DNA of 40,282 bases from Methanosarcinales archaeon (GTDB taxonomy: Archaea > Halobacteriota > Syntropharchaeia > Alkanophagales > Methanospirareceae). The notes under the pieces were generated by a model. That model was not told the origin of the DNA. It saw only the letters and a list, made by a program, of their open reading frames with translations, and ran no database searches. This document shows positions 1,519-18,408 of this stretch, in pieces (positions within the stretch are counted from its first letter, which is position 1; each line of letters begins with the position of its first letter). Position numbers and translations under genes: made by a program. The stretch covers positions 1 through 40,282 of the forward strand of contig JAODGH010000056.1 of assembly GCA_025464325.1 (NCBI GenBank), read 5' to 3'.

Positions 1519-1587
1519 ATGGAACTGGAGTTAGTAACAACCACCAGTGGTGAGCAAATTTGTATGAGGAGGGAAGGACAGAGATGA
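1519..1587 (+). CDS. Possible 22-codon leader peptide
   Basis: A short reading frame starts at ATG 1519 behind purine-rich AAAGGAGGG and GAGGAAA sequences. It runs 22 codons to a TGA at 1585-1587 that overlaps the ATG of the binding-protein gene (ATGA at 1584-1587). That overlap is the usual form of translational coupling. The peptide is polar, contains one Cys and resembles nothing I know. The frame also spans the palindrome CACCAGTGGTG (1542-1552). It may be a regulatory upstream frame or chance. Confidence 0.3.
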   Translation: MELELVTTTSGEQICMRREGQR

Positions 1588-3158
1588 TGCGGAAGATCGC
1601 TATCATTGCGGTATGCATGGTATTGCTCGGCTGTGTAATGGCGGGCTGCATAGAAAAAGAGCCGCAACAGGCAGCCAGTACAGAGCAGGGTGCCGTAAAA
1701 CAATCGCTCAAAGTAGGAGAGATGTGGAGTATCCGTTCAGTGGATCCTGCGAAGAGTGGCTCCCTGATGAAAGAGAAGGCGATGATCGTTGAGACACTGG
1801 TCGGAGCCAACCCGGATTTTACACTCAAGCCATGCCTTGCTGTGTCATGGGAACGGATAAATGACACACAGTGGAGGTTTCATCTGAGGAAGGGTGTGAA
1901 ATTCCACGATGGAACGGATGTTACAGCAGAGGCGGTAAAATGGTCAATTGAACGGGTTTTAAATATGAATCCGGCGGTGAAAGCGTTAACACTGATAAAA
2001 TCCATTGATGTTGTCGATGACAGTACACTGATATTCACAACGGAAGAGCCATACGCCGCTTTTCCCGCGTCACTGGAATATTCAAACCTTGGGATAGTAA
2101 GCTCTACTTCTGAGATGGATGACAAGGGCGTTATAGTAAAGCCCATTGGGACAGGACCCTTCAAATTTGATCGATTCGATGTGGCAACCGGTACGTTATA
2201 CCTGTTGAGGAACGACAATTACTGGGGAACAAAACCAAAACTCGAGAGTGTGATCATCCAGGGTATTCCAGATCCGGCATCTCGTGCAATGAGTGTGGAG
2301 AAGGGGGAGGTAGACTTCACCTGCGATGTACCCTACGGTGACATTGAACGGCTGAGGGCAACTCCGGGATTGCATGTAGAGGTACACCCAACAGCCCGGG
2401 TGTATCAGTTGACATTCGGTAATCTCACAGGAACGCCGTACAGTGATTTGCGTGTGAGGAAAGCGATAAGCTATGCGATCGATCGCACGGTGATAAGCAA
2501 TAATACGCTGCATGGCTGTGCGGCACCAGCCATAGGTCCCGTGATGCCTTCCATGGCATGGTTCAACCGTGATACAAAAGGCTATCCTTACGATCCGGCG
2601 AAGGCGAAAGAACTGCTTGCCGAGGCAGGATGGGTAGATACTGATGGAGATGGCATAGTGGAGAAAGACGGCGAAGAATTTAGTGTGACTTTGTATACGT
2701 ACCCGCAGAGACCCGGACTCCAGCCAATGGCTGAAGCGATTCAGGCTATGCTGAGCGACGTGGGCATCAAGGTCGATATCAGGGTGATGGAGTTCAGTGC
2801 CATAGCAGAGCACATGACCGACCGCGACATGAAACTTTCAGCATATGCGCTGGCGATGGTACCAGATCCTGACTACTATCTCAGGAGGATATACCATTCT
2901 AAAGGCGCATACAATGCATGGGGATACAGCGATCCAGAAATGGACTCACTGCTTGAGGAAGGACTGAGAACTTTTGACCCGGATAAGCGACGGGAGATAT
3001 ATAACAGGGTGCAGGAGAAAGCTCTTGATGAGGTGCCTCTGATTCACGTGGCGTACTACAAAGTTGCGGTCGTTATGCGTGATAACGTCAAAGGTTTTGT
3101 CTTCAACCCGATCGCGCATGACTACATGCTGAATCCCGAGATGTATATAGAGGATTAG
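1584..3158 (+). CDS. ABC transporter solute-binding lipoprotein (SBP_bac_5; peptide/nickel type)
   Basis: About 524 residues from ATG 1584, chosen over an upstream TTG because GAGGAGGG lies about 10-15 bases before it. The N-terminus is a lipoprotein signal: basic MMRK, a hydrophobic stretch, then VMAGC with the lipidated Cys. Family 5 hallmarks follow: LAVSWERINDTQWRFHLRKGVKFHDGTDVTAEAV, IGTGPF, IPDPASRAMSVEKGEVD, and VRKAISYAIDR. The protein would sit outside the membrane and hand substrate to the two permeases encoded next. Family members carry oligopeptides, nickel or metal chelates, and the sequence alone does not decide among them. No ATPase gene follows this set. The shared operator with the CooC operon suggests nickel. 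Confidence 0.88.
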   Translation: MMRKIAIIAVCMVLLGCVMAGCIEKEPQQAASTEQGAVKQSLKVGEMWSIRSVDPAKSGSLMKEKAMIVETLVGANPDFTLKPCLAVSWERINDTQWRFHLRKGVKFHDGTDVTAEAVKWSIERVLNMNPAVKALTLIKSIDVVDDSTLIFTTEEPYAAFPASLEYSNLGIVSSTSEMDDKGVIVKPIGTGPFKFDRFDVATGTLYLLRNDNYWGTKPKLESVIIQGIPDPASRAMSVEKGEVDFTCDVPYGDIERLRATPGLHVEVHPTARVYQLTFGNLTGTPYSDLRVRKAISYAIDRTVISNNTLHGCAAPAIGPVMPSMAWFNRDTKGYPYDPAKAKELLAEAGWVDTDGDGIVEKDGEEFSVTLYTYPQRPGLQPMAEAIQAMLSDVGIKVDIRVMEFSAIAEHMTDRDMKLSAYALAMVPDPDYYLRRIYHSKGAYNAWGYSDPEMDSLLEEGLRTFDPDKRREIYNRVQEKALDEVPLIHVAYYKVAVVMRDNVKGFVFNPIAHDYMLNPEMYIED

Positions 3159-3187
3159 GAGATGCGGATGGCTGCTGAGGGGGGCAG

Positions 3188-4138
3188 ATGCTTGGGTACA
3201 TTGCAAAACGAACAGTAATAGCAGTGTTCGTGGTATTTGCCACATCCGCACTCACTTTTTTTCTACTCTCTCTTATTCCTGGTGAGACAGCCGTAACGAT
3301 TATACAGCGAGTATTTGTCGGAGATGTTACTTATAATCCGTCACAGGCGGAGATTGAAGCGACAGAACGGATGTTTCAGCTCGGTAATCCCCTGTGGATA
3401 CAATACCTGCAATGGCTGGACAATGCAGTACACGGTAATTTTGGAACTTCTTACATCTCGGGGAGACCCGTGTTAGAAGAGATATTGGTCAGATTACCGG
3501 CAACGGTCGAGCTGGCAATTGCCGCGATGGTGGTATCGCTTCTCATAGCCATACCCCTCGGTGTAATCTCCGCGGCAAAACAAAACTCGAAGACAGACTA
3601 TTTTAGCATGGCTATCGCGACATTCTTCATAGCCATGCCGAATTTCTGGCTGGGGCTCATCCTTATCCTGATATTTTCACTGCACCTCGATTTATTGCCA
3701 GTGGCGGGATATGGGGGTCTTGACCATCTGATACTCCCGGCTATCACGCTGGGTGCAGGTATGATGGCAGTAACGGTGCGCTTAACGAGGTCAAGTGTGC
3801 TGGAAATACTGCGATTGGACTTCATAACAACAGCAAGAGCAAAGGGTGTGGACGAAAAACGGATCCTGTACAGGCATGTACTTAAAAATGCAATGATACC
3901 CGTAGTAACCATAGCAGGTCTGCAACTCGGCTACTTACTGGGAGGAACAGTCATCGTTGAGACGATTTTTGCATGGCCGGGCATCGGGAAACTACTGGTT
4001 GATTCGATAGAGGCTAAGGATATACCAATAATTCAGGGTTGTGTGGTTTTCATAGCGATAATATTCTCTCTGGTGAACCTGCTCGTGGATATCTCCTACT
4101 ATTTCCTTGATCCAAGAATAAAATATGAGAGGGTGTGA
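3188..4138 (+). CDS. ABC transporter permease, DppB/NikB type
   Basis: 316 residues with about six membrane helices. The N-terminus MLGYIAKRTVIAVFVVFATSALTFFLLSLIPGE is the typical DppB start, ending in the IPGE/APGD motif. The cytoplasmic coupling loop, TTARAKGVDEKRILYRHVLKNAMIP, is the EAA motif that contacts the ATPase. The C-terminus DISYYFLDPRIKYE is also characteristic. It starts 29 bases after the binding protein and its stop touches the start of the next permease. It should pair with the next gene to form the channel. With no local ATPase it must borrow one, plausibly from 14130-16008. Confidence 0.9.
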   Translation: MLGYIAKRTVIAVFVVFATSALTFFLLSLIPGETAVTIIQRVFVGDVTYNPSQAEIEATERMFQLGNPLWIQYLQWLDNAVHGNFGTSYISGRPVLEEILVRLPATVELAIAAMVVSLLIAIPLGVISAAKQNSKTDYFSMAIATFFIAMPNFWLGLILILIFSLHLDLLPVAGYGGLDHLILPAITLGAGMMAVTVRLTRSSVLEILRLDFITTARAKGVDEKRILYRHVLKNAMIPVVTIAGLQLGYLLGGTVIVETIFAWPGIGKLLVDSIEAKDIPIIQGCVVFIAIIFSLVNLLVDISYYFLDPRIKYERV

Positions 4139-5020
4139 ATGACAGCTTACGGCATCAAACGAACGAGTATTTTTGCTGATAATCGGTATCTACGCATCTT
4201 GAAGCAGAAATCGGTGGTGACAGGCTCGATGTTAATTCTTGGATTGATGTTTCTCGCGATTTTTGCTCCACATCTGACTATTTATGACCCTATTAAAGTG
4301 GATCTGCACAATAACATCCTGCCACCATCGTGGGAACACCCGTTTGGAACAGACAATCTGGGGAGAGATGTGTTTACCCGGGTTGTTTACGCAACAAGGA
4401 TAGACCTCTTAGCGAGTCTCTTCATCGTGGCATTATCCGTGATCATCGGGCTATTAACGGGAATATTCGCGGGTTACTATGGCGGAATTATAGACAAGAT
4501 GCTCATTGGTATGATGGATACTTTCCTCGCGCTACCCGAGATAATTCTGGCGCTGGTACTCGTCGGCGCTCTTGGACCCAGTATATTTAATGCAGCGTTA
4601 GCCCTGGCTCTATTTGGATGGGTGAGATACGCAAGGGTTTCGAGGGGTTTGACACTCTCGATAAAGGAGAAGGAGTTTATAGAAGCAGCAAAAGCAGTGG
4701 GAGTTGGAGACTTTTATCTCATTGCCCGTCATATTATACCAAACGCCATTGCTCCTATATCGACCCTCGCAGCACTACATCTCGGACACGCGATCTTATC
4801 ACTTGCAGCACTGGGCTTTTTGGGTATGGGTGCTCAACCTCCGATGCCTGAATGGGGCGCTATGCTAAACGAAGGCAGGGTGTTCTTGAGGGTGGGATGG
4901 TGGCTGTCAGTATTTCCGGGATTGATGATCATGATCACGGTTTTGGGCTTTAATCTGCTCGGCGATGGTTTGCGGGACGCATTGGATCCAAGATTGAGAC
5001 AGCTAATGTCGATGAAATGA
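4139..5020 (+). CDS. ABC transporter permease, DppC/NikC type
   Basis: 293 residues, about six helices. The N-terminal LITIYDP-like segment and the PFGTDNLGRDVFTRVVYATR motif are DppC hallmarks. The coupling loop is IEAAKAVGVGDFYLIARHIIPN, and the C-terminus has NLLGDGLRDALDPRLRQ. The ATG directly follows the TGA of the preceding permease, so the two are co-translated. This is the last gene of the first transporter unit, and the next promoter begins 10 bases after its stop. It is clearly homologous to the permease at 13291-14133, for example in the shared SIKEKEFIE and GLMIMITVL stretches, so the two transporter sets are paralogues. Confidence 0.9.
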   Translation: MTAYGIKRTSIFADNRYLRILKQKSVVTGSMLILGLMFLAIFAPHLTIYDPIKVDLHNNILPPSWEHPFGTDNLGRDVFTRVVYATRIDLLASLFIVALSVIIGLLTGIFAGYYGGIIDKMLIGMMDTFLALPEIILALVLVGALGPSIFNAALALALFGWVRYARVSRGLTLSIKEKEFIEAAKAVGVGDFYLIARHIIPNAIAPISTLAALHLGHAILSLAALGFLGMGAQPPMPEWGAMLNEGRVFLRVGWWLSVFPGLMIMITVLGFNLLGDGLRDALDPRLRQLMSMK

Positions 5021-5203: not shown

Positions 5204-7477
5204 ATGGCATCGAAGATATGGAAAATATGTATGGCTGTCGCTCTGGCATTTGCAGTGCTGGTCATACCGACTTCTGCATCGGTAATCAGTGCAACGCAGC
5301 AGAAGCTAAGTTATGGGCAGAGCTTCATCGTCAATTACAACAATATCTCCATCAAGCTGGATGGCATAGATGCAAACGTGATACTCGGTCAGGATATCCA
5401 GTTCTATGATGAAAACGGCAGAAAAGTTGCCGGCAGGGTGATACTGGAGAGACAGAGTGATGAGAACAAAGGCGAAACTGTATCGTCGGATTCTAATGGA
5501 TGGTTTGACACAAGACTATTGAACAATACGGGGAATTACACTGCTACATGTCCGGATTGCCAGTCCGTACAGCCCACTACAATACATGTAGGCACAACGA
5601 AGATAATTTTAGAGTTGAAGAAGGGCACTTCCACGATCTCAAGTGTGTCGCAGGGCTCTCACTTCACGATAAAGCTCACGACCTCGTTAGATGCAAACGA
5701 TGGTGTGAGTCTGAAGGTGAAGAACCCGGATGGAGACACAGTAAAGAAAAATCCTGCAGATGGAACGGTGTTTGATGGTGTTAACGTGAGTTATCTCCAG
5801 AATCTTGATATAAATACCACCGGGTGGGAGATCGGAACGTATACGTTCCGGGTTTCTACGAGCGAGACCAAAGCACGGGGCTTAGTGCTGAAGAGCGAAG
5901 AAAAGACGCTGGAGATTGTGAAGCCTTCTATAGAGATAAAAGCGGAAGAAACAACTGTGGGTGTGGGTGAACCAGTAAAACTGACCGTGACGGGTGTGCC
6001 GGGTCATAATATAACGGTTACCGGTGGGCAGTACGCATTATTCCCCGGTGGTGTGAACAACAACCCTTCAAATGATACTATTGACACATTCACCCACAGC
6101 ATAGGCAGCGGCGGTAAAAGGACCTATACTGTTATTTTCAACAAAACCGGGTCACACAAGGTCAAAGTGACAGATACTGACAGCGGTAAAGAGGACACGG
6201 TGGATATATCCGTAGTGAAGCGGAAAGTAACATTTTACATGCCCGATACCTGTGTGATCGGCGATGACCTCGTGATCAATGGTACTGCAACGGCGGGAGA
6301 TACGGTAGATATCGCGATTGATGACGTGATCGTGATGACCGATATTGTGATCGATGACAATGGTAACTTTAAAGAGGATTTACCAACGCCAGATACACGG
6401 GGGACGGGGGTAGAAGGAGACATCGAGATAGAAGCGTTTATAGACAAGAATTTTGTGGTGGGGCAGCATGTTGGTGATTTCAGTGACGATGGTTTTATTA
6501 TCGTATCGATGGTAAAAGGCGGTTTAACCGCGGAGTTATCTTCCGGGTTTGCTGCACTCGGTGATAGTTTCATAGTCAATGGTACTGCACCGGGTTCTGA
6601 TGCGGTAGATATAATCACCATTGCTCCGCGCGGTGGTGGAGGAAAGGGTATAGACCCTTCCAATTCAGCACTAAATGGACTACCCTCCGGGATTACTATC
6701 GAGACAGTATCCACCTCTGGCGATGATTTCTCATTCTCAGCCGAGATCGATATTCAAAAGAACGCGGATAGCGGCATTTATCTCGTGTTTGTGCTAACTC
6801 CGGGCAAGGATGGCGAGTACGGTATGCTCGGTACCGACAATTTGTTCGAAGGTATAAAAAGAGAGTATGCCGGCGGCGACCTGAAAAATCTTGCTGCGAA
6901 GACGCAGGAGCAAATACGAGACATAATAGCGGATGCAACCATAGGAGCTGCGGGCAGCGATGACTTTGTGCGAATGTTAGAGCTGAAGATAGGAGAGAGG
7001 ATGGTACGGCTTGATCCCGTTGCAGATGTGGTAGCTGGCAGTGATCTCATCATTACGGGCATATCGAACCGGGAGGGACGATCAATAAAGGTGAGTGTGA
7101 GAGGTCCATCAGATCTCGGAACAAAGACCGTGGTGGTTACAAAAGGCGTATTTAGTGCGAAGTTCAATACTACGGGTGCATTACCGGGCAAATATACTGT
7201 GGTGGTGGATGACCGGGACGATCATACAGACACTGCGAGTGTAAATATAACAGCAGGTGAGAGTAGCACTGCAAAAACACCAGTTCCTACAGCAACGGTG
7301 GAAGCAACACCAACACCTACACCAGCACCTGCGCAGACAACCACTCCAGTACCAACACAGACACCTGCACAGACTTCAAATATGCCGGGCTTTGAGACGG
7401 TGTTTGCCATTATGGGTATGATGATAGCAATTGCTTTTGCGGTTTTTGTTGCGAAAAAGAGAGGTGGTGAGAGATAA
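5204..7477 (+). CDS. Secreted surface protein with PGF-CTERM anchor
   Basis: 757 residues from ATG 5204, chosen because AAGGAGGT (5188-5195) is 8 bases upstream; a TTG at 5171 would add 11 basic residues. The signal peptide is KIWKICMAVALAFAVLVIP ending TSAS. The body is rich in beta strand, with repeated Ig-like segments such as VKLTVTGVPGHNITV, DLVINGTATAGDTVDIAIDD and SFIVNGTAPGSDAVDI. Many N-x-S/T sites suggest glycosylation. A Thr/Pro-rich stalk follows, then MPGFETVFAIMGMMIAIAFA and a basic KKRGGER tail. That is the PGF-CTERM signal processed by archaeosortase A, which attaches proteins to the membrane lipid at the cell surface. It heads the nickel-type operon, so surface metal capture or scaffolding is possible, but no metal-binding motif is evident. 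Confidence 0.85.
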   Translation: MASKIWKICMAVALAFAVLVIPTSASVISATQQKLSYGQSFIVNYNNISIKLDGIDANVILGQDIQFYDENGRKVAGRVILERQSDENKGETVSSDSNGWFDTRLLNNTGNYTATCPDCQSVQPTTIHVGTTKIILELKKGTSTISSVSQGSHFTIKLTTSLDANDGVSLKVKNPDGDTVKKNPADGTVFDGVNVSYLQNLDINTTGWEIGTYTFRVSTSETKARGLVLKSEEKTLEIVKPSIEIKAEETTVGVGEPVKLTVTGVPGHNITVTGGQYALFPGGVNNNPSNDTIDTFTHSIGSGGKRTYTVIFNKTGSHKVKVTDTDSGKEDTVDISVVKRKVTFYMPDTCVIGDDLVINGTATAGDTVDIAIDDVIVMTDIVIDDNGNFKEDLPTPDTRGTGVEGDIEIEAFIDKNFVVGQHVGDFSDDGFIIVSMVKGGLTAELSSGFAALGDSFIVNGTAPGSDAVDIITIAPRGGGGKGIDPSNSALNGLPSGITIETVSTSGDDFSFSAEIDIQKNADSGIYLVFVLTPGKDGEYGMLGTDNLFEGIKREYAGGDLKNLAAKTQEQIRDIIADATIGAAGSDDFVRMLELKIGERMVRLDPVADVVAGSDLIITGISNREGRSIKVSVRGPSDLGTKTVVVTKGVFSAKFNTTGALPGKYTVVVDDRDDHTDTASVNITAGESSTAKTPVPTATVEATPTPTPAPAQTTTPVPTQTPAQTSNMPGFETVFAIMGMMIAIAFAVFVAKKRGGER

Positions 7478-8214
7478 TGGTAAGAAGGAAAACGGCTATG
7501 CTGGGATTGATGGCGCGGGGGCATGAAATATGGCTTGAGAAAAGAGAGATAGCGGACGGTAATGTGGAGCTGGCGTTACTATACGGGCACAACATGCGCG
7601 CAGACGGACTCGTGGACCAGGAGCGAGTGACTCCCATCGTTTACTCACCGGATGGTAAGAGGCTCAATCCCCAGCTGACAGCCAGAGAGGACCATTATAT
7701 ACTGACGTTTCAGGCTGAAAAGGGTGGATATTACACTGTAATCGCAGATCTCTCTTCCGTTGTGCTGTCGCAGACCGAAGAAGGCTATCAGGTCGGTCCG
7801 AAGTTCAAGTTCAAGGATGTGATTTATGCGGGTGCTTACCATCAGATGGCAAAGAGGATAGTTAAAATCGGTGATGCTGGCTCGTATCATGGTGAACTCG
7901 TGCACGGGATACTCGAGATTGTACCAGAGAAGATAGAATGTGAGGTGGGTAGTGAGGTTGAACTGACGGTATACTATGAGGGTGAGAGACTATCGTCAGT
8001 GGAGGTGAAAGTGGTACCGAAGAAGCGAGGTGAAGCGCTGGATATGGTTACGACCGATGGAAACGGGATTGCTAAGATTCCCATCACGGAGGTGGGTGAA
8101 TGGATGTTTCTGGTACGACATAGAGACCCCACGAAGAGGGTCAGTGAAGAATATGACGAGTCGGTATTCGTGAGCACACTGGTCCTGGAAGCGACTGAGC
8201 GGAGGGCTGAATGA
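7477..8214 (+). CDS. DUF4198/NikK-like protein
   Basis: 245 residues. The N-terminal pattern HEIWLEKREIADGNVELALLYGHNMRADG matches the DUF4198 family ('H.FWLEP...v.l.l.yGH'), whose members include NikK, an extracytoplasmic component that accompanies nickel/cobalt transporters. A second beta-rich domain (IECEVGSEVELTVYYEGERLS, then TTDGNGIAKIPITEVGEW) has the carboxypeptidase-regulatory/Ig-like look of the family C-terminus. The residues H(16), H(55) and H(120) are possible metal ligands. No clear signal peptide precedes the HEIWLE segment, which is unusual for a family normally exported. The start overlaps the TAA of the surface protein and the stop overlaps cooC. Nickel linkage is inference from family and context. 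Confidence 0.65.
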   Translation: MVRRKTAMLGLMARGHEIWLEKREIADGNVELALLYGHNMRADGLVDQERVTPIVYSPDGKRLNPQLTAREDHYILTFQAEKGGYYTVIADLSSVVLSQTEEGYQVGPKFKFKDVIYAGAYHQMAKRIVKIGDAGSYHGELVHGILEIVPEKIECEVGSEVELTVYYEGERLSSVEVKVVPKKRGEALDMVTTDGNGIAKIPITEVGEWMFLVRHRDPTKRVSEEYDESVFVSTLVLEATERRAE

Positions 8215-8982: not shown

Positions 8983-9183
8983 ATGTGCGAATTTGTGGTG
9001 TATTTAGAGGAGGACAGCAGTAAAGAGAGAGAAGTTGTGGCGAGGAAGATAATAAAGGCGAAGAGGAAGGATGGTAAGACCGTTCTGATTGATGCAGCCG
9101 GTAATGTCACAAGAATTGAGCACGTGAGTATTGAGGTGGTGGATACGCTCATGCAGGAGCTGGTCTTGAGAAAAGTGAGTTGA
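8983..9183 (+). CDS. cooT: CooT family nickel-binding protein
   Basis: 66 residues beginning MCEFVVYLEE and continuing with strands KIIKAKRKDGKTVLIDAAG and VTRIEHVSIEVVDTL. This is the CooT pattern of a small Sm-like beta barrel whose Cys2, just after the initiator Met, is the nickel ligand. CooT acts with CooC and CooJ in nickel delivery to CODH in Rhodospirillum rubrum; archaeal homologues are common but less studied. It sits between cooC and a methyltransferase gene, with 7 and 4 bases between. The small size means the call rests on MCE..VYL, the spacing of the strands, and the cooC neighbour. Confidence 0.8.
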   Translation: MCEFVVYLEEDSSKEREVVARKIIKAKRKDGKTVLIDAAGNVTRIEHVSIEVVDTLMQELVLRKVS

Positions 9184-9187: not shown

Positions 9188-10012
9188 ATGCCCGATGCGA
9201 AACATAAAATAAGGAACTACTGGAATAGGAGGTCATCAACATTTGACCGTTCCCCGGGCCATATCATAGGCAGTATCGATGAGAAAGAAGCATGGATATC
9301 ACTTTTTCGTGAGAAGTTCGGCAGCAGGGTGCGAAAAGTACTCGATGTGGGCGCGGGAACCGGCTTTCTTTCGCTTATACTGGCTGAGATGGGCTATGAT
9401 GTGGTTGGCATAGACATCTCAGAAGAGATGTTAGAGCATGCGAGGAATAAAGCGGCAGATCGAGGAGTAAAGGTGGAGTTCAAATTGGGTGATGCAGAAG
9501 ATTTGCCATTTAAAAATGATTCTTTCGACGCCATCGTGAATAGAGCAGTTCTGTGGACTTTACCGGATCCTGAGAAGGCTGTAAGGGAATGGAAACGCGT
9601 GTTAAGACCCGGGGGGATACTGTGTTTCTTCCTCCATGAGCCACATCAGGGTGGTCTAACACAACGTTTACGGCGACAACTCGGTAATATTCTGATCCTC
9701 TTTTTAGAGAGGCGGAATCCATGGCATTCTCTCTATGATGGTAAGTTGGGTGTGGATCTTCCTTTTAGAGGCGGTGTAGAACCTTCAGTAATAACGAAAC
9801 TTTTAGAGGATGCTGGTTTTGAACATGTCTCTGCCGAGTCAATGCACGAAATAAACAGGTTAAAAGTCACAAATATGCCCTTATGCTACAGGATAGCTCA
9901 CGGTAACCATACTCAATACTGTTATACTGCCGTGAAACCGGAATCAGGAGGTGTAAGCGATTACAGGTATTCCATAATGAACGGAACCCGGGTTGATTAT
10001 AGGGAGGGATAA
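9188..10012 (+). CDS. Class I SAM-dependent methyltransferase 1
   Basis: 274 residues. SAM-binding motif I is VLDVGAGTGFLSLILAEMGY (about 51-70), the acidic motif II is VVGIDISEEMLEHAR, and GDAEDLPFKNDSFDAIVNR gives motifs III-IV (Methyltransf_11 type). The C-terminal half is clearly similar to the methyltransferase at 11580-12326: LILFLERRNPWHSLYDGKLG here against LILITEHRIPCHGHYDRDME there. The acceptor is unknown. Both genes flank a NikA-like binding protein inside a nickel-type transport operon, so modification of a small metal-binding molecule is a possibility, not a demonstration. The C-terminal tail beyond about residue 250 is extended relative to its paralogue. Confidence 0.82.
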   Translation: MPDAKHKIRNYWNRRSSTFDRSPGHIIGSIDEKEAWISLFREKFGSRVRKVLDVGAGTGFLSLILAEMGYDVVGIDISEEMLEHARNKAADRGVKVEFKLGDAEDLPFKNDSFDAIVNRAVLWTLPDPEKAVREWKRVLRPGGILCFFLHEPHQGGLTQRLRRQLGNILILFLERRNPWHSLYDGKLGVDLPFRGGVEPSVITKLLEDAGFEHVSAESMHEINRLKVTNMPLCYRIAHGNHTQYCYTAVKPESGGVSDYRYSIMNGTRVDYREG

Positions 10013-10018
10013 AATGAG

Positions 10019-11578
10019 ATGCTAACAAAAGGGAAGAAAATTGGTATTATGCTGGTATGCGTGATATTTTTGTGCAGCATAATGGTGGGTTGCATAGAAC
10101 GGAAAGAGCAGGAGGGGGTTACTTCCGCTTCGAGCCAGATATTGACGATTGGATATGGAAGAGATACAAATGTGGAATCACCGAAAATGATGGGCTTTAT
10201 GCCGGAGATGATGGTTCTGGAGAGGCTAATAGAATACAGAGATGGTAAGATACTGCCAGAATTAGCAAGTTCCTGGGACATCAAAGATAACGGCAGGACG
10301 ATAATCTTCCATTTAAGGAGTGGCATTAAATTCTCGGATGGACAACCGTTCACCGCTGACGATGTAAAATTCACTTTTGAGCGTTTAAAAGCATTGAAAT
10401 ATTATCACTGGACTGAAGCTGATCGGATAGATAGCATAGAGGTGATAGATCCGCACACGATAGCGTTTCATTACAAGGAGGGTAAAGAAGGATACATCGC
10501 ATTGACTGCTTTTGGCGAGTACCATTGTAGCATTATGAGTCCCGCATCGGTTGAACCAAAAGGAGATGTCAAAGGAAAGATCGTGAATCCCATAGGAACA
10601 GGTCCATGGAAGGTGGCGGAATATGTAAAAGATCAGTATACGATATTCGTACCAAATGAGCTATATCGTGGCGAGAAACCGAAACTGGACAAGATTATAG
10701 TCAAGGATATACCAGATGCCGAAACAAGGGTTCTGGCTCTCAGATCCGGTGATGTGGATATGATAGTTGATTATTATCATGGTGGTTCCAGATATACACC
10801 CAGAAATTCGTTAGAACCTTTGAAGAGCGCGGGTTTCAATGTATTCAAATGCGAGATGCCGATGACCACCGTGATCGTGTTCAATTACCATAAAAAGCCG
10901 TGGGACGACGTGAGGGTCAGGAAAGCAGTAAATTATGCGATCGATAAAGAAGGAGTCTCAGCACTATTCGATAACTGGGTGGCACCAGCAAAACACGGAT
11001 TGTATGGGGTAAAAGGACCATACATTAAAGAGTCTAATGTGGAGGAGTATCCTTACGATGTAAATATAGCAAGAAACTTACTTGAGGAAGCGGGGTATAA
11101 AGAGCTGGAAGCCGACCTTATACTGAAAGGGGAGAATCCCGATGAGGTCAAGCTTGGCGAATTTATACAGGCGCAGTTGAAGAAAGCAGGGATCAATGTG
11201 AAGCTGGACGTACTGGAGGGTGGCGCATATAACGAGCGGAGGAATAAAGGAGATTATGATCTCAGGATATACTACATAGGCGGTCCTGAGAGGAGAAGTT
11301 ACACGAGGACGGATGGTAGATTTAATCCCGACGCCCCGGAATTCAAATACGGTGCATATGATGACCCTGAGCTAACAAGAGTTCTTAAGATAGCTGTATC
11401 ATCATTCAACGATAGTGAGCGTCGCAAAGCTTTCAAAGAGTTTTATCAACTGCTACATGATAAGGCGGGTGTTGTACCACTATACTACGATGCGGTGTTT
11501 ATTGTGGCGAATAAGAAAGTGAGGGGCGTCAAGTATGTGAGTTCCGAACCACGTTTTACCGGTGTCTGGATAGAATAG
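10019..11578 (+). CDS. NikA-like ABC solute-binding lipoprotein (SBP_bac_5)
   Basis: 519 residues. The lipoprotein signal is KGKKIGIMLVCVIFLCS ending SIMVGC. Family 5 motifs are LASSWDIKDNGRTIIFHLRSGIKFSDGQPFTADDVKFTFE, NPIGTGPWK, DIPDAETRVLALRSGDVD, and VRVRKAVNYAIDK. The IGTGPW and PD..TRVLALRSGDVDM stretches resemble NikA more than dipeptide-binding DppA, which favours nickel or a nickel chelate. It is flanked directly by two paralogous methyltransferase genes and followed by its own permeases and ATPases. Compared with the binding protein at 1584 it is a paralogue, not a duplicate. Transporter class is sure; substrate is inferred from similarity and from cooC/cooT in the same operon. Confidence 0.88.
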   Translation: MLTKGKKIGIMLVCVIFLCSIMVGCIERKEQEGVTSASSQILTIGYGRDTNVESPKMMGFMPEMMVLERLIEYRDGKILPELASSWDIKDNGRTIIFHLRSGIKFSDGQPFTADDVKFTFERLKALKYYHWTEADRIDSIEVIDPHTIAFHYKEGKEGYIALTAFGEYHCSIMSPASVEPKGDVKGKIVNPIGTGPWKVAEYVKDQYTIFVPNELYRGEKPKLDKIIVKDIPDAETRVLALRSGDVDMIVDYYHGGSRYTPRNSLEPLKSAGFNVFKCEMPMTTVIVFNYHKKPWDDVRVRKAVNYAIDKEGVSALFDNWVAPAKHGLYGVKGPYIKESNVEEYPYDVNIARNLLEEAGYKELEADLILKGENPDEVKLGEFIQAQLKKAGINVKLDVLEGGAYNERRNKGDYDLRIYYIGGPERRSYTRTDGRFNPDAPEFKYGAYDDPELTRVLKIAVSSFNDSERRKAFKEFYQLLHDKAGVVPLYYDAVFIVANKKVRGVKYVSSEPRFTGVWIE

Positions 11579-11579
11579 A

Positions 11580-12326
11580 ATGAATGCGAAGGAGATCATA
11601 AAGGACGAGTGGAACCGGTTAGCCCGGGACTTTGATGATAAGGCGGGTCATGGAATCCGCACAAAGGAAGAGGAAGAGGAGTGGATAAAGCTGTTGACTG
11701 CTGCAATTGGTAAGAATCGGCTGAAAATACTGGATGTGGGGTGCGGTACCGGTGTGATCACACTGCTTCTTGCGAAGATGGGGCATTATGTGACAGGAGT
11801 CGATATATCCGAGCGAATGTTGGAAAGAGCACGGGATAAAGCAAAGAGCATAGCGGTTACGGTGAAGTTCGAGTTGGGAGATGCAGAAGACCTGCCATTC
11901 AAAGACGAAGTTTTTGACGTTGTGATTAATAGACACCTCCTATGGACAATGCTAAACCCCGAGAAAGCTGTAATCGAGTGGAGAAGGGTTTTAAAGCCCG
12001 GAGGTAAGGTTATAATAATCGATGGTATGTGGAATACATGGACACTGCCCAGACGAATCTGGCGTCTCCTTGCTGCACCCCTGATATTGATCACAGAGCA
12101 TCGGATCCCCTGCCACGGTCATTACGATAGAGATATGGAGAAGAAGTTACCGATGAAGCAGAGTAAACGCCCTCAGGCGGATATCGAGCTCCTTGAGCGA
12201 TGCGGTTTTGTGGACATTAACGTGACCAGGGTAGAAATTCCGATAAGCAGAACGTTCATCGAACGGCTGAAGTATGGTTACTGGAATAATGACAGGTTCT
12301 TGTTAAGTGCGACCAGGTCGGAATAA
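11580..12326 (+). CDS. Class I SAM-dependent methyltransferase 2
   Basis: 248 residues. Motif I is ILDVGCGTGVITLLLAKMGH, motif II VTGVDISERMLERAR, and GDAEDLPFKDEVFDVVINR follows. The FKLGDAEDLPFK-type block is almost the same as in the methyltransferase at 9188-10012, so the pair arose by duplication and diverged mainly in the C-terminal substrate region. The start codon is one base after the TAG of the binding protein, and the permease follows after 3 bases, so it is co-translated with transporter parts. The acceptor is unknown. Two methyltransferases interleaved with a nickel-type importer is the oddest trait of the operon. Confidence 0.82.
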   Translation: MNAKEIIKDEWNRLARDFDDKAGHGIRTKEEEEEWIKLLTAAIGKNRLKILDVGCGTGVITLLLAKMGHYVTGVDISERMLERARDKAKSIAVTVKFELGDAEDLPFKDEVFDVVINRHLLWTMLNPEKAVIEWRRVLKPGGKVIIIDGMWNTWTLPRRIWRLLAAPLILITEHRIPCHGHYDRDMEKKLPMKQSKRPQADIELLERCGFVDINVTRVEIPISRTFIERLKYGYWNNDRFLLSATRSE

Positions 12327-12329: not shown

Positions 12330-13262
12330 ATGAAGAGGTACATCGCAAAAAGGCTGCTCTTGCTAATACCGATCATGCTTGGGGCATCCATGCTCTCTTA
12401 CTCTATCCTTTATCTTGCACCTGGAGACCCCGCTGAGTTGATGCTCGAGAGACAGCTGCAGGGTGTCCCCACTCAGGAACAGATAGAGGCATTCAAAGAG
12501 GAGCATGGACTAAACGCGCCCATTCCAATACAGTTTGCAAACTGGCTTTACAGGATACTACATGGCGATTTTGGTATATCACTTAGAACCGAAAAGCCAG
12601 TACTGACAGAGTATTTGAATAGATTCCCCGCCTCTCTTGTTCTATTTCTTATGTCACAGACCCTCTCTATCGCTATCGCGATTCCTCTTGGCATCATATC
12701 TGCGGTAAAACACAATTCGGAGATAGATCATCTCTCACGATTCGTGGCGATGATTGGCGTTTCTGTACCGAACTTCTGGCTGGGGTTGCTCTTAATTCTC
12801 TTCTTTGCCGTTTATTTGGGCTGGCTTCCTGCCTTTGGCTATGGTGGTTTTGCACACCTGATCCTGCCGGCGTTGGCTCTGGGTGTATCAGGCTGTGCAT
12901 CTATCATGCGACTGATGAGAGCAAGTCTGCTTGATGTTTTAAATCAGGATTATATCAGAACAGCGAGAGCTAAGGGTCTGTGTGAAAGGGCTATTATAGT
13001 GAAGCATGCTTTAAAAAATGCCCTTATACCCGTCGTAACTGTTATTGGATTACATATCGGGCATCTTATTTCGGGTATGGTAATCATCGAGACCATATTT
13101 GCCTGGCCCGGAGTCGGGAGATTTCTGGTTGAATCGATACATGCAAGGGATTTTCCGGTAATTCAGGGTTTTGTATTGCTCATTGCGATGATATTTGTCT
13201 TTTCCAACCTGATCGTGGATATTTCATATACATACCTGGATCCCAGGATAAGGTATGAGTAG
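12330..13262 (+). CDS. ABC transporter permease, DppB/NikB type
   Basis: 310 residues with about six helices. MKRYIAKRLLLLIPIMLGASMLSYSILYLAPGDPAE is a textbook DppB/NikB N-terminus. The coupling loop is RTARAKGLCERAIIVKHALKNALIPV and the C-terminus is DISYTYLDPRIRYE. It pairs with the permease at 13291. It is homologous to 3188-4138, with shared YISGRP/LRTEKPVL region and FWLGL and FAWPG stretches. The gene starts 3 bases after methyltransferase 2. The substrate is the one delivered by the lipoprotein at 10019. Confidence 0.92.
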   Translation: MKRYIAKRLLLLIPIMLGASMLSYSILYLAPGDPAELMLERQLQGVPTQEQIEAFKEEHGLNAPIPIQFANWLYRILHGDFGISLRTEKPVLTEYLNRFPASLVLFLMSQTLSIAIAIPLGIISAVKHNSEIDHLSRFVAMIGVSVPNFWLGLLLILFFAVYLGWLPAFGYGGFAHLILPALALGVSGCASIMRLMRASLLDVLNQDYIRTARAKGLCERAIIVKHALKNALIPVVTVIGLHIGHLISGMVIIETIFAWPGVGRFLVESIHARDFPVIQGFVLLIAMIFVFSNLIVDISYTYLDPRIRYE

Positions 13263-13290: not shown

Positions 13291-14133
13291 ATGAACGATA
13301 GCATTCATCAGCTTAAAAGGGATAAAATGGCAATGATCGGAATGATGATAATAGCTATTCTTACCTTTATTGCGATATTCGCGCCATATCTGGCACTGTA
13401 TGATCCGCTGGAAGTAAATATGGCGGATCGCTTACAGATGCCAAATGAAAAGCACCCGCTGGGAACTGACCAGCTGGGCAGGGATCTCTTAAGCAGGCTC
13501 GTCTATGCGACACATGTTTCAATAACGGCAGCTGCACTGGCTACATTTATGATTATGACCCTTGGCGTGACGATAGGGGCAATTGCAGGGTATTTCGGGG
13601 GTATCGTCGATCAAGCAATAATGCGTATAGTGGATGTGCTATTATCCTTCCCCAGCTTGATTCTGACAATAGCGATTGCAGGCATTTTGGGTCCCTCACT
13701 CATACACCTTGTAATTGCAATGACCGCCACAGGCTGGGTAGGTTATTCGAGAATAATTCGTGGTTCTGTTCTGTCTATAAAAGAAAAAGAATTCATAGAG
13801 GGTGCGAGAGCGCTGGGATTTGGCAATTTGTATATCATCACCCGCCATATTATACCAAACGTCATCTCGCCCGTGATTGTAATTGCAACTATAGATATGG
13901 GACACATAATACTATCTATTACCGGATTGAGTTTTCTGGGTCTGGGTGCGCAACCTCCCACTCCAGAATGGGGTACGATGCTCAATGAAGGAAGACCCTT
14001 TATGGAGACGGCACCACATTTGATGATATTCCCGGGATTAATGATCATGATCACGGTATTAGCCTTCAACTTCCTGGGTGACGGTTTAAGGGATGCACTG
14101 GATCCGAGGATGCGAGAGGTGATGATGAAATGA
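13291..14133 (+). CDS. ABC transporter permease, DppC/NikC type
   Basis: 280 residues, about six helices. The N-terminal MIGMMIIAILTFIAIFAPYLALYDP and HPLGTDQLGRDLLSRLVYATH stretches are DppC/NikC hallmarks. The coupling loop is IEGARALGFGNLYIITRHIIPN and the C-terminus is NFLGDGLRDALDPRMRE. The stop overlaps the start of the next ATPase gene by four bases (ATGA), so translation is coupled to the ATPase. It is closely related to the permease at 4139-5020, which lacks its own ATPase. Confidence 0.92.
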   Translation: MNDSIHQLKRDKMAMIGMMIIAILTFIAIFAPYLALYDPLEVNMADRLQMPNEKHPLGTDQLGRDLLSRLVYATHVSITAAALATFMIMTLGVTIGAIAGYFGGIVDQAIMRIVDVLLSFPSLILTIAIAGILGPSLIHLVIAMTATGWVGYSRIIRGSVLSIKEKEFIEGARALGFGNLYIITRHIIPNVISPVIVIATIDMGHIILSITGLSFLGLGAQPPTPEWGTMLNEGRPFMETAPHLMIFPGLMIMITVLAFNFLGDGLRDALDPRMREVMMK

Positions 14134-15071
14134 CGGTGTTGAGCATACGAGGTTTAAAGGTGTATTTCTCTACGGAAGATGGTATTGTGAAAGCAGTGAA
14201 CGGTGTTGATCTGGACATAGGAGAGAACGAGACGCTTGGATTGATCGGTGAGACGGGATGCGGTAAAACGGTATTGGGGCTATCGATACTGCGATTACTC
14301 TCCGAGAACACGGTAGTGGAGGGTGAGATCCTGTACAGGGGCATGGATCTGCTCAAACTCAGTGAGGAGGAGATGAGGAAGATAAGGGGAAAAGAAATAG
14401 CAATGATCTTTCAAAATGCATTGACCTCGATGAATCCGGTCCTCACGGTAGGAACACAGGTTTCCGAGCCTTTTGAACTGCATCATGGCTTAAGAAGGAG
14501 GGACGCGTTAATGAAAGCGATAGAGATGTTGAAGTTAGTGCGAATATCGTCACCATCGGAGAGAGTGAAAGAATATCCTCACGAATTCAGCGGTGGAATG
14601 AGGCAGAGAGCGATGATTGCTATGGGACTCGCCTGTGAACCCTCATTGATAATTGCAGATGAGCCGACCACGGGTCTGGATGTAACGATACAGGCGCAGG
14701 TGGTAGAACTGATGAAAGAACTAACGATGAGATCCCGAACCTCCATGTTGCTGATAACCCATGACCTCGGAGTAGCCGCAGAGTTGTGCGATAATATTGC
14801 AGTAATGTATCCCGGCGAAATCGTTGAATATGCGAATACAGTGGAGATATTCAAAAACCCCAAACATCCGTACACACAGGGTTTCCTTGATTCTCTTCCG
14901 GGCAGGGGCTTAAAGCCGATGGAGGGCATGAGTCCGTCCCTGATTAATCTCCCGGAAGGCTGTAAATTCCACCCAAGATGCCCTTTCGCGTTAGAACGGT
15001 GTAAGCGAGAGCACCCGAGGATGGTGGAGATAGGTAATAACCATCAGGTGAGGTGTTTCCTCTATGATTAA
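14130..15071 (+). CDS. ABC transporter ATPase, DppD/NikD type
   Basis: 313 residues. Walker A is GETGCGKT, the signature is [13 protein letters not shown], Walker B is [12 protein letters not shown], and the switch histidine is in LLITHDLG. The C-terminus has the oligopeptide/dipeptide ATPase extension with the cysteine-rich [20 protein letters not shown], the region that in some family members binds an iron-sulfur cluster. It overlaps the permease by four bases and the next ATPase by eight. The two ATPases form the heterodimeric motor for permeases 12330 and 13291, and are the only candidates in the window to power the permeases at 3188-5020. Confidence 0.92.
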
Positions 15072-16008
15072 AGTGGAGAATCTGAAGAAATATTTCTCGA
15101 CCGGTATATTCGGAAAAAAATACGTCAGAGCAGTAGATGGTGTCAATTTTGAGATTAAGTACGGAGAAACGCTTGGTCTGGTAGGTGAAAGCGGTTGTGG
15201 CAAGACCACGGTTGGTAGATTACTTCTACGGCTGATCGAGCCCACGGAAGGTAAAATATATTTCAAAAACACGAACATTATTGAACTGAGTAAGAAGGAG
15301 TTGAGACGGTTGAGACCAAAGATGCAGATAATATTTCAGAATCCTGACACATCGCTTGATCCGAGGATGAAGATAGGGGAAAGCATTGCAGAGCCAATTA
15401 AACTTTACAAAATCGTTAGTAAAGATAAGATAAATGAAAAAGTGATGGAACTCATTGATACGGTTGGACTGAACCCGGAACACGTAAACAGGTACCCGCA
15501 TGAGTTGAGTGGCGGTCAGAACCAGAGGGCGGTAATAGCACGCATTCTTGCAATAAATCCGGAGTTCATAGTTGCCGATGAACCCACTTCGTCACTCGAT
15601 GTGAACGTACAGGCTCAGATCCTATCATTGCTAAAGAACTTAAAGGATAAGTTCGGACTTACATGTCTATTCATCTCACATGACCTGGAAGTAATAAAGG
15701 TGATGACCGATGAGATAGCGGTGATGTATCTGGGTAAACTGGTGGAGATGGGTAAGACGGTGGACATATTTAACGGTGCGAGACATCCGTACACGCAGGC
15801 GTTACTATCGGCAATTCCTGTGCCTGACCCCGATGCGAAACGTAAAAGAATCCTTCTGCCTGGTGAAATCCCGAATCCAATCAATCCACCAGCCGGTTGC
15901 AGATTCCATACCCGGTGTCCGTACCGCGAGAGGATATGCGAGATGGTTGAGCCAGAGATGATCGATATTGGGGGAGGACATAAAGTAGCCTGTCATTTAA
16001 ATCATTAA
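15064..16008 (+). CDS. ABC transporter ATPase, DppF/NikE type
   Basis: 314 residues. It has Walker [10 protein letters not shown], signature [15 protein letters not shown], Walker [13 protein letters not shown] and switch FISHDLE. The signature is LSGGQ, the canonical form, whereas its partner has SGGMR. The C-terminal cysteine-rich segment is [16 protein letters not shown] with a further Cys near the end (VACHL), as in its partner. The start lies inside the 3' end of the DppD-type gene. Start and spacing leave no doubt that it is the second motor subunit of the same importer. Confidence 0.92.
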
Positions 16009-16014: not shown

Positions 16015-16941
16015 ATGATCGAAGTGGAGAACCTGGTAAAAACTTTTGGCGACGTTACTGCGGTAGATGGTATAAGTTTCAGGGTACGAAAGGGCGAGAT
16101 ATTTGGCTTCCTGGGTCCCAACGGCGCGGGTAAGACCACAACAATTAATATACTTGTGGGACTATCGCTTCCCACTTCCGGAACCGTAAGAATAGCAGGG
16201 CTCGATGTGACAAAACACCCGATAGAGATAAGGAAGAGAATAGGCATAGCAGCTCAGGATGCATACTTCGACCACCATCTGAACATCGAGGACAATCTTT
16301 TCTATCACGGGTTGTTGTACGGACTACCAAGGAGAGAGCTCAAGAGGCGGGTGGATACCGCTTTACGATGGAGCAACCTTGAGAGATACCGTAATAAGAA
16401 GTTCCATCAGTTATCGGGTGGTATGCAAAGGCGGCTTATCGTTGCACGAGCAATGTTATCAGACCCTGAGATACTGCTACTGGATGAACCCACGACCGGT
16501 CTTGACCCGCAGACAAGAAGACAGGTCTGGAAGTTCATAAAGGACCTGAAAGTAGCGGGAAAAACTGTTCTTCTGACGACCCACTATATGGAAGAGGCGG
16601 ATCTTCTTTGCGACAGGATCGCTATTATAGACCATGGCAGGATCATCGCCTGTGGCACACCAGACGAACTGAAGAAGATGCAGGCAAAGAATATTGTGGT
16701 TGATATAAAGTTGAGGAGGGAAATCGCGGGCAATCAGATCGAGAGAGAATTGAATGGTATCCCTGGTGTCAGTTATGTAAAAATAGAAGATAGCAGGATA
16801 CGGATCGGTGTTGCGGAAGAGGCGACAGTAGAAGCGGTTTTGAGAAGTGTGATAACAACAAACGGGATATGTGAACTCAATATTGTCCGTCCAACGCTTG
16901 ACGATGTTTTTCTGCATCTGACCGGTAAGGAGATACGCTGA
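16015..16941 (+). CDS. ABC-2 type exporter ATPase (DrrA/CcmA-like)
   Basis: 308 residues. Walker A is FLGPNGAGKTTTINILVG, the signature LSGGMQRRLIVAR, Walker [15 protein letters not shown] and the switch LTTHYMEEADLLCD. The EEAD.LCDRIAIIDHGRIIACGTP block and the C-terminal extension ending LDDVFLHLTGKEIR are typical of drug/antibiotic or polysaccharide exporters of the ABC-2 class, distinct from the two importer ATPases before it. It starts 6 bases after the importer ATPase, without a visible promoter or terminator between. Its partner permease follows after one base. The exported molecule is unknown; position invites a link with the methyltransferases. Confidence 0.9.
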   Translation: MIEVENLVKTFGDVTAVDGISFRVRKGEIFGFLGPNGAGKTTTINILVGLSLPTSGTVRIAGLDVTKHPIEIRKRIGIAAQDAYFDHHLNIEDNLFYHGLLYGLPRRELKRRVDTALRWSNLERYRNKKFHQLSGGMQRRLIVARAMLSDPEILLLDEPTTGLDPQTRRQVWKFIKDLKVAGKTVLLTTHYMEEADLLCDRIAIIDHGRIIACGTPDELKKMQAKNIVVDIKLRREIAGNQIERELNGIPGVSYVKIEDSRIRIGVAEEATVEAVLRSVITTNGICELNIVRPTLDDVFLHLTGKEIR

Positions 16942-16942
16942 A

Positions 16943-17707
16943 ATGAGTTTAAGGCTGATTAAAGCTGTACTCGCGGTATGGGAACGTGAGATGTATGAAT
17001 ACCTGATCAATCTACACATAAATGCCCTGCGGCTTGCAATAGAGCCATTACTATTCATTTTCATCTTTGGTATGGGACTTGGCAGGCGTGTAGTGATAGG
17101 TGACGTGGATTATTTGTATTTCCTGGCACCGGGCATACTGTTTATGGTCGTGGTGAACAACAGCTATATGACGATCTCAATGAGACTGATGATCGCACGA
17201 GATTGGGATAAAACACTGATCACTGCGCTAAGTGCCCCGGTAAAACCGTTTGAGATCATTCTCGGCTACGTACTCGCAGGGATAACACAGGCACTGGCTG
17301 CGTGCACCATATTCCTTGTATTAATGATATACTTCCTGGGTATACCGTTTGGTTCTGTATCGCGGGTACTGTTGCTCATCATAGCGACAGCCGCTTTTTT
17401 CTCCTCACTCGGAGTGATGATCGCAGTGGTACTGGATAATCCGCATCACCTCATGGTTATAACTTCAATCGTAGTCCTGCCCATGAGCTTTTTCTGCGGT
17501 ATTTTCATACCTGTGAGTGACCTGCCCGGCTGGTCGCAGCCGATAATAGAAGCGATACCACTTACCGTGGCGGTGGAGTCAGCCAGAGCGTTTGCACTGG
17601 GCAGCGGCAACCCCGGTATCTGGCAAAGTCTGGCATATATAATGGCTTTTACAATAGCCGTGTTTATTGCAGCGCTGTATCTCTTCAAGAGAAAGCTGAT
17701 TATTTGA
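16943..17707 (+). CDS. ABC-2 type exporter permease
   Basis: 254 residues with about six helices, in the ABC-2 membrane class. The N-terminal amphipathic WEREMYEYLINLHINALRLAIEPLLFIFIFGMGLG, the YLYFLAPGILFMVV stretch and the late SMSFFCGIFIPVSDLPGWSQPIIEAIPLT segment match the ABC2 signature (FFLSGxxxPxxxLP). It forms a two-gene exporter with the ATPase before it and is the last gene of the 13-gene unit. Its 3' end overlaps by 8 bases the 3' end of the convergent aldolase gene on the minus strand, leaving no room for a terminator between them. Confidence 0.88.
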   Translation: MSLRLIKAVLAVWEREMYEYLINLHINALRLAIEPLLFIFIFGMGLGRRVVIGDVDYLYFLAPGILFMVVVNNSYMTISMRLMIARDWDKTLITALSAPVKPFEIILGYVLAGITQALAACTIFLVLMIYFLGIPFGSVSRVLLLIIATAAFFSSLGVMIAVVLDNPHHLMVITSIVVLPMSFFCGIFIPVSDLPGWSQPIIEAIPLTVAVESARAFALGSGNPGIWQSLAYIMAFTIAVFIAALYLFKRKLII

Positions 17708-18278: not shown

Positions 18279-18303
18279 TATAGCCAGCCCAGTCGATACG
18301 GGA

Positions 18304-18376: not shown

Positions 18377-18408
18377 TGCTTTCACATTTAACTTTTTAAA
18401 TTAACTTT

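What the first reader, a model, noticed from the sequence alone, without database searches (positions are those of the whole stretch)
9188..12326. Two paralogous methyltransferases flank a NikA-like binding protein
The two enzymes share the GDAEDLPFK block and a similar C-terminal half, with a lipoprotein gene between them. Methyltransferases are not parts of peptide or nickel importers. A possible meaning is synthesis of a methylated small nickel carrier, or repair of a modified corrinoid or F430-type ligand imported by the system.
Basis: inference. Interest (0 to 1): 0.65.

Follow-up and report, generated by a model that had tools for sequence, protein, structure and literature searches.

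The report
Methyltransferases tied to nickel uptake genes
Two methyl-transferring enzymes in this archaeon sit inside a nickel-uptake operon, and their relatives in many archaea and some bacteria sit beside metal importers too, which points to an unrecognised chemical step in how these microbes handle nickel.

Summary
MT1 (9188-10012) and MT2 (11580-12326) are intact class I SAM methyltransferases, 41% identical, flanking a NikA/CntA-like lipoprotein in a tight operon that continues into NikBCDE. CooC, CooT and a CooS-type CO dehydrogenase elsewhere in the genome make nickel the likely cargo.

The association is not local. Of 89 members of this family examined across Halobacteriota-type genomes, 82 lie beside a metal-type importer (61 Nik/Opp, 15 FecCD, 6 ECF), against 4 of 35 other Methyltransf_11 genes from five of the same genomes. 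Rhizobial relatives lie beside FecCD importers. In ANME-1-like relatives a different methyltransferase family fills the same slot between the binding protein and NikB, next to F430-synthesis genes. Eight family loci adjoin nicotianamine synthase genes, and the window's own genome carries two.

Best reading: the enzymes methylate a small nickel ligand that the importer handles. The nickel link is well supported (about 0.85). The ligand, and whether methylation builds it, releases metal from it or remodels an imported tetrapyrrole, is not shown. I found no paper describing this linkage in the searches named.

The parts
9188..10012 (+). MT1, class I SAM-dependent methyltransferase (Methyltransf_11), SAM motif DVGAGTG intact
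   Evidence: clade with importer-linked relatives
10019..11578 (+). NikA/CntA-like substrate-binding lipoprotein (SBP_bac_5)
11580..12326 (+). MT2, second class I SAM-dependent methyltransferase of the same family, SAM motif DVGCGTG intact
12330..13262 (+). NikB-like permease (Opp2B, 392 bits over cut-off 350)
13291..14133 (+). NikC-like permease (Opp2C, 329 bits over cut-off 300)
14130..15071 (+). NikD/OppD-like ATPase
15064..16008 (+). NikE/OppF-like ATPase
8983..9183 (+).
   Evidence: read; PF10133 32.5 bits over cut-off 27; 84% identical copy in relative L072
8211..8975 (+). CooC/MinD-type ATPase
   Evidence: CbiA 3.9e-18, ArsA 5e-15; 74% identical in L072; the CooC name is by neighbourhood with CooT
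7477..8214 (+). DUF4198 protein, recurrent near nickel transport genes
1560..5020 (+). second SBP plus NikB-like and NikC-like permeases without their own ATPases
16015..17707 (+). ABC-2 type ATPase and membrane protein; possible exporter at the operon end, kept in relative L072
150..875 (+). FmdE-like gene; FmdE-like genes also adjoin Methanosarcina-type MT operons
   Evidence: sequence; recurrence; the name is recalled and was not tested by a family search here

Best explanation
MT1 and MT2 belong to a family of small-molecule SAM methyltransferases that work with nickel (or cobalt) importers. The binding protein NikA captures a nickel-ligand complex outside the cell and NikBCDE imports it. 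MT1 and MT2 methylate the ligand in the cytoplasm, most likely as tailoring steps in making or recycling a low-mass nickel chelator of the SAM-derived amino-acid type whose backbone a nicotianamine synthase (NAS)-like enzyme could make. CooC and CooT then pass nickel to CO dehydrogenase. Shown: gene content, operon layout, family-wide linkage, NAS genes in the same genome, a nickel CO dehydrogenase in the same genome. Inferred: nickel as cargo, methylation of the ligand, NAS product as that ligand, direction of the chemistry.
For: Linkage: 82 of 89 family members near an importer, against 4 of 35 non-family Methyltransf_11 genes and 0 of 38 distant homologues. The Nik importer label changes at least 15 times on the tree while the MT stays, so the MT follows a shared cargo rather than one importer. 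Replacement: Methyltransf_2 enzymes fill the SBP-NikB slot in G018, G042 and G044, and precede NikB at a contig end in G050; in G046 a third type does. Others lie beside NikB and CooC in L308 and L309, or FecCD in L311-L313. Nickel: CooT and CooC beside MT1; own CooS 556.8 bits over 478; CfbE and CfbD after NikE in L208, CfbC and NikR in L165. Chelator: NAS genes beside MT in eight loci; two NAS genes in the window's genome. Bacteria: 7 of 11 plasmid regions opened have a FecCD importer and 1 has nikBC.
Against: No acceptor is known; family models fit only as generic methyltransferases. The window genome's NAS genes lie on another contig (C49). NAS-linked MTs form subgroups of one clade that holds neither MT1 nor MT2, and 62 of 89 MT genomes have no NAS hit. 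Relative G023, with the same cluster, has no NAS hit. ECF importers take free ions (recalled), so a ligand in the medium is not needed there. Three of 14 related NikB operons visibly lack a methyltransferase. Some Methanosarcina-type copies adjoin genes that look like Mo enzymes (fmd, nif), so cargo may not always be nickel. No dedicated exporter is constant: Gate permease near 8 of 89.
Confidence: 0.45

Rival explanations
1. The methyltransferases remodel an imported or newly made nickel or cobalt tetrapyrrole (F430, a corrinoid or a relative), not a linear chelator.
For: Cfb genes lie beside relatives' operons. FecCD importers (heme, cobalamin or siderophore type) and NifDK/NifH-like reductases cluster with family members in L073 (PBP2 binding proteins there) and with Methyltransf_2 in L311 and L312. 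The only NCBIfam hit of one replacement enzyme is the tetrapyrrole methylase BchU, weakly (47.5 bits, cut-off 276). CfbD is present in the window's genome.
Against: McrA was not found in the window's genome nor in G023, the one relative with the same cluster. Rhizobia with the family are not F430 makers (recalled). Nik/Opp importers and ECF systems are not known tetrapyrrole importers in general (recalled).
Confidence: 0.22
2. Release by methylation: the enzymes methylate a donor atom of the imported chelator so that nickel is freed, as other cytosolic enzymes break down imported siderophores.
For: The gene lies beside importers of several types without a constant biosynthesis partner or exporter, and beside FecCD importers in rhizobia with no metallophore genes annotated nearby.
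Against: Six family loci adjoin ECF importers, which bring in free ions, and eight loci adjoin NAS, a synthesis enzyme.
Confidence: 0.15
3. Ordinary bystanders: small-molecule methyltransferases with an unrelated acceptor that happen to be carried in these operons.
For: Methyltransf_11 is a huge family with 62 matches at E<=1e-8 in the Methanosarcina-sized genome G382 alone. Three of 14 related NikB operons lack a methyltransferase.
Against: 82 of 89 against 4 of 35; replacement by other methyltransferase families in the same slot; spread over many families of archaea and to bacteria.
Confidence: 0.08
4. The cargo is not mainly nickel: the importer-MT modules carry several metals or anions (cobalt, molybdenum, iron) and the MT ligand is general.
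For: Methanosarcina-type operons lie next to genes that look like the fmd and nif-mod operons; rhizobial members sit with 'iron ABC transporter' genes; ECF partners may carry cobalt.
Against: In the window CooT is nickel-binding by family and CooC lies beside it, and NikR and Cfb genes adjoin relatives.
Confidence: 0.1

Closest known systems
NikABCDE nickel importer (Escherichia coli type)
   Same: Gene set and order SBP-B-C-D-E; NikB and NikC pass the nickel-type Opp2B and Opp2C cut-offs.
   Different: NikA falls below the NikA model cut-off (235.9 of 393). The Pro-Arg of solved CntA and Brucella NikA is Gly-Glu here. Two methyltransferases lie inside the operon.
Staphylopine/Cnt metallophore system of Staphylococcus
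   Same: CntA-like binding protein (213 bits) and a NAS-like chelator synthase in the genome.
   Different: CntA cut-off is 800; NAS is not in the operon; opine dehydrogenase and CntE-like exporter were not sought; Cnt systems have no methyltransferase (recalled).
Archaeal nicotianamine synthase of Methanothermobacter (MtNAS)
   Same: Same Pfam family PF03059 as the two NAS genes of this genome and as the NAS genes beside MT relatives; that MtNAS is in PF03059 is recalled.
   Different: The NAS product in these organisms is unknown, and no methylated product is described in the passages read (PMC10248798, passages).
CpaM corrinoid-protein-associated methyltransferase (NF043040)
   Same: Best NCBIfam match of MT2 (87.2 bits); class I fold; lies with metal-cofactor genes.
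   Different: Far below its cut-off of 180; no corrinoid protein in the operon.
CooC/CooT/CooJ nickel accessory set of CO dehydrogenase
   Same: CooC-type ATPase and CooT lie directly upstream, with CooS elsewhere.
   Different: Here they lie in a nickel import operon, not beside the CO dehydrogenase gene.

Membership tests
NikABCDE nickel importer | NikB and NikC match nickel-type permease models above cut-off | tested here: met
   Opp2B 392 over 350 and Opp2C 329.3 over 300; but TIGR02789 NikB 360.4 under 447 and TIGR02790 NikC 350.1 under 358.45
NikABCDE nickel importer | NikA passes the NikA model | tested here: not met
   TIGR02294 235.9 under 393; Opp5A 127 under 600
NikABCDE nickel importer | ligand-contacting Arg of NikA/CntA conserved (recalled as R137/R140) | tested here: not met
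   PRP of CntA and Brucella NikA aligns with GEYHC in the window; Arg in 1 of 38 MT-adjacent SBPs (alignment of a fragment, so rough)
NikABCDE nickel importer | transports nickel | not testable with these tools
   context only: CooC, CooT, CooS
Nicotianamine/staphylopine-type metallophore system | NAS-family chelator synthase encoded | tested here: met
   two PF03059 genes in the genome, 114.9 and 107.5 bits over 27.1, on another contig
Nicotianamine/staphylopine-type metallophore system | CntA-type binding protein | tested here: not met
   NF047575 213.2 under 800
Nicotianamine/staphylopine-type metallophore system | dedicated metallophore exporter | tested here: inconclusive
   ABC-2 pair at the operon end of the window and of L072; Gate permease near 8 of 89 family members
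Nicotianamine/staphylopine-type metallophore system | opine dehydrogenase | not tested
   not searched
UbiE/MenG quinone methyltransferases | passes TIGR01934 | tested here: not met
   76.4 (MT1) and 86.5 (MT2) under 158.35
ArsM arsenite methyltransferase | passes PRK11873 | tested here: not met
   70.6 and 63.3 under 263
CpaM | passes NF043040 | tested here: not met
   71.6 and 87.2 under 180
Class I SAM-dependent methyltransferase | Methyltransf_11 domain with intact SAM-binding glycine motif and acidic residue | tested here: met
   G55, G57 and D76 of MT1 conserved in 85 of 85 family rows

The most novel reading that the evidence does not exclude
Archaea, and some bacteria, use an unrecognised class of methylated metal chelator. 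A NAS-type or other backbone is methylated by importer-linked methyltransferases, of which several unlike families (Methyltransf_11 type, Methyltransf_2 type) have been recruited to the same operon slot, and is cycled through Nik, FecCD or ECF importers to feed CO dehydrogenase and F430 synthesis with nickel. It would be a general small-molecule nickel currency of methanogen-related archaea.
Probability: 0.25. Interest if true: 0.8.

Novelty: new variant of a known kind. Interest (0 to 1): 0.6.

Why it matters
How methane-cycle archaea, which carry large nickel-dependent enzyme sets, take up and traffic nickel is poorly known. A methyltransferase family this closely tied to metal importers gives a concrete handle: the acceptor can be looked for in tractable Methanosarcina laboratory strains. 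If the acceptor is a nickel ligand, it would be a new class of metallophore chemistry and would place the orphan nicotianamine synthases of archaea in nickel metabolism.

Tried and rejected
Horizontal transfer of the cluster: the window cluster is mostly 72-85% identical to G023, but a control gene (HerA-like, window 33913-35373) is 84% identical to G023 as well, so no transfer is claimed.

NikR operator: the recalled GTATGA-N16-TCATAC consensus with up to 3 mismatches gave 17 matches where shuffles give 19.3, so nothing.

Methylthio-F430: a Radical_SAM+BATS pair beside Methyltransf_2, NikBCDE and CfbE in L215 looked like a candidate for the unknown 17(2)-methylthio-F430 pathway, but it occurs in only 2 of 58 genomes of the class, one of which (G023) has no McrA hit, so it was dropped. 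The tested ANME-1 methylthiotransferase did not make that cofactor (PMC10702137, passages).

Structure: AlphaFold2 of MT2 with 13 rows gave mean pLDDT 77, but the acceptor lid 151-195 is below 50. Foldseek gave 1687 PDB matches at E<=0.001, headed by small-molecule methyltransferases (phosphoethanolamine, LahSB, MitM) at query TM-scores of about 0.6. This does not name an acceptor.

Quinone, tRNA, arsenite and malonyl-ACP methyltransferase families: all below their cut-offs. The genome-contig scan returned only distant homologues; it was used as a control.

MT-NAS co-occurrence: 27 of 42 NAS genomes have the MT family against 62 of 350 without NAS (by hand; NAS counted at E<=0.001, 38 of the 42 over the cut-off). 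Not used as proof, because Methanosarcina-type genomes dominate both sets.

Rows and limits: one search scored only 6 candidates per genome and cut its list; I opened regions for the top of that list and some lower places, not all. The 170-bit family threshold was set after seeing the scores. Near-duplicate genomes are not independent. In one search the 35 control genes come from 5 genomes, mostly one, and one of them (L266, 156 bits, in a Nik operon) may be a family member.
Full report
What is there. The window is G000:C24:1-40282, from an archaeal draft genome of 1.42 Mb, 94% complete. Reading order on the + strand: FmdE-like (150), a binding protein with NikB-like and NikC-like permeases (1560-5020), a repeat-rich surface-type protein (5171), DUF4198 (7477), CooC-type ATPase (8211), CooT (8983-9183), MT1 (9188-10012), NikA-like lipoprotein (10019-11578), MT2 (11580-12326), NikB (12330), NikC, NikD, NikE (to 16008), and an ABC-2 type pair (16015-17707). 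From CooT to NikE the gaps between genes are at most 28 bp or the genes overlap. MT1 and MT2 are 41% identical over 251 columns; both keep the SAM-binding glycine motif and the acidic residue after it. McrA was not found in G000 or in five of the six other genomes of its genus held, although CfbD of F430 synthesis is present in G000 at 506 bits.

Nickel as cargo. CooT passes its Pfam cut-off (32.5 over 27) and is 84% identical in relative G023 (L072), which keeps the order DUF4198-CooC-CooT-MTs-NikA-MT2-NikBC. The same genome as the window encodes a CooS-type nickel CO dehydrogenase (TIGR01702 556.8 over 478). In relatives the operon continues into CfbE and CfbD (281.8 over 250 and 498.6 over 268.4) in L208, or has CfbC (422 over 402) and NikR next to NikBCDE-MT in L165. 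Nickel transport itself is not shown.

The family-wide linkage. I built a profile (A2) from ten members and searched 392 genomes of the phylum: 89 have a match at E<=1e-35. I then opened regions around listed places and called genes by a simple ORF script with BLAST against named window and relative proteins. Among the 69 sources used there are 89 members scoring at least 170 bits. In 82 of 89 a binding protein, permease or ECF component lies within five genes and 5 kb: 61 Nik/Opp type, 15 FecCD/PBP2 type, 6 ECF type. Seven have none by this count: L077, L078 and L161 (these adjoin NAS genes), L151, L169, L199 and L205. Control: 40 Methyltransf_11 places taken from five of these genomes. Five of them score 170 or more and 4 of these 5 are beside an importer; of the 35 others, 4 are. 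The 38 distant homologues show none with Nik, FecCD or Cbi membrane parts.

Importer swapping and paralogy. In a tree of 97 rows (IQ-TREE) the importer-type labels need 17 changes where shuffled labels need 33: clustered, but swapped many times (starred branches force at least 15 for the Nik label). MT1 groups with L072, L074, L157 (FecCD-linked) and L148 at 100/99; MT2 with L072 at 100/100 and with a set that includes FecCD-linked rows at 99/97. MT1 and MT2 are thus old paralogues, each with importer-linked relatives. Methanosarcina-type genomes also flank a Nik/Opp operon with two family members (L150, L163, L170, L171, L174, L176, L177, L196, L204).

Other methyltransferases in the same slot. 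Of 14 other genomes in the class with a NikB at least 50% identical to the window's, three (G023, G056, G057) have family members in the operon. In G018, G042 and G044 a Methyltransf_2 enzyme with a dimerisation domain lies between the binding protein and NikB; in G050 it precedes NikB at a contig end; in G046 a different class I methyltransferase lies between the binding protein and NikB. In G007, G027 and G030 the NikB operon seen has none. In G009, G014 and G028 the contig ends too close to tell. Members of the Methyltransf_2 set also lie beside NikB and CooC (L308, L309) and beside FecCD/BtuD or PBP2 genes (L311-L314), in L311 and L312 together with NifDK/NifH-like genes; L315 has no such importer. 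One of the replaced operons is followed by CfbE and CfbD (L208) and two by CfbE-like genes (L215, L216). Recruitment of unlike methyltransferases to one slot is, in my view, the strongest argument that methylation serves the importer's cargo.

Nicotianamine synthases. The unannotated gene most often recurring beside family members is NAS, PF03059: eight loci (L076-L079, L149, L161, L193, L194). G000 has two NAS genes on contig C49, next to a DtxR-type regulator. NAS genes without an MT next to them lie beside CbiO and CbiQ genes, a CbiX/CfbA-looking gene or CfbE in G007, G036 and others (the CbiX/CfbA name is by eye). Against a simple NAS-MT pathway: 62 of 89 MT genomes have no NAS hit, G023 has none, and the NAS-linked MTs form subgroups of one clade apart from MT1 and MT2.

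Bacteria and haloarchaea. tblastn of MT2 against plasmids gave 198 records at E<=1e-12, mostly Rhizobiaceae. Of 11 regions opened, 7 have a FecCD-type importer directly beside the gene or one small gene away, 1 (Haloterrigena sp. KLK7) has a binding protein with nikB and nikC, 2 have neither (Halobaculum, Peptoclostridium) and 1 carries no annotation (Proteus record).

The binding protein. Its nearest solved relatives by sequence include Brucella NikA and CntA. The Pro-Arg shared by those two in the stretch recalled to hold the ligand-contacting Arg reads Gly-Glu here, and most MT-adjacent binding proteins lack Arg there (1 of 38 has it, rough alignment). So the ligand is probably neither Ni-histidine nor staphylopine.

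Mechanism. Most likely MT1 and MT2 methylate a small nickel ligand that NikA-NikBCDE bring in, with the ligand made in the cell or taken from others, and CooC/CooT pass nickel on. The steps from linkage to chemistry are inference. Two close rivals remain open: remodelling of a metal tetrapyrrole, and release of nickel by methylating the imported ligand.

Literature. Searches (terms in those calls) turned up no paper in their listings that describes this linkage; only open-licence PMC papers are held. Read as passages only: PMC9012536 (ANME-1 and 'Methanoalium'), PMC2667541 (nickel transporters in archaea), PMC10248798 (NAS-like enzymes use SAM and amino-acid starters), PMC10702137 (origin of methylthio-F430 unknown).

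Noticed in passing
whole genome G000; relatives G009-G013 and G023: No McrA hit in the window's 94% complete genome, in five of six other genomes of its genus, or in G023, yet CfbD of F430 synthesis is present in G000 at 506 bits.
   Followed up: partly
L073; L311; L312: Clusters of NifDK-like and NifH-like genes with FecCD/PBP2 importers and methyltransferases; in L073 the nitrogenase-like enzymes fit no named model above cut-off, apart from one NifH-like protein passing a broad nitrogenase-reductase-like subfamily.
   Followed up: partly
L215:2653-4747; L316:6900-7967: Radical_SAM+BATS proteins in G044 (a pair, in a Nik-Methyltransf_2-CfbE cluster) and G023 (one, beside FecCD); found in 2 of 58 genomes of the class.
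   Followed up: partly
L251; L253; L255: NAS genes beside CfbE, CbiO/CbiQ or a CbiX/CfbA-looking gene, suggesting a role of nicotianamine-type chelators in nickel delivery for F430.
   Followed up: partly
L150; L148: In the M. acetivorans-sized genome (contig of 5,751,492 bp) two MT-Nik/Opp operons lie next to genes that look like the fmd operon and like nif plus a molybdate-type transporter, which hints at cargo other than nickel.
   Followed up: no
window 1560-5020: A second binding protein with NikB/NikC-like permeases but no ATPases of its own upstream; it may share NikD and NikE.
   Followed up: no
window 18300-23480: A stretch poor in convincing ORFs that looks like a ribosomal RNA region (by eye only).
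   Followed up: no
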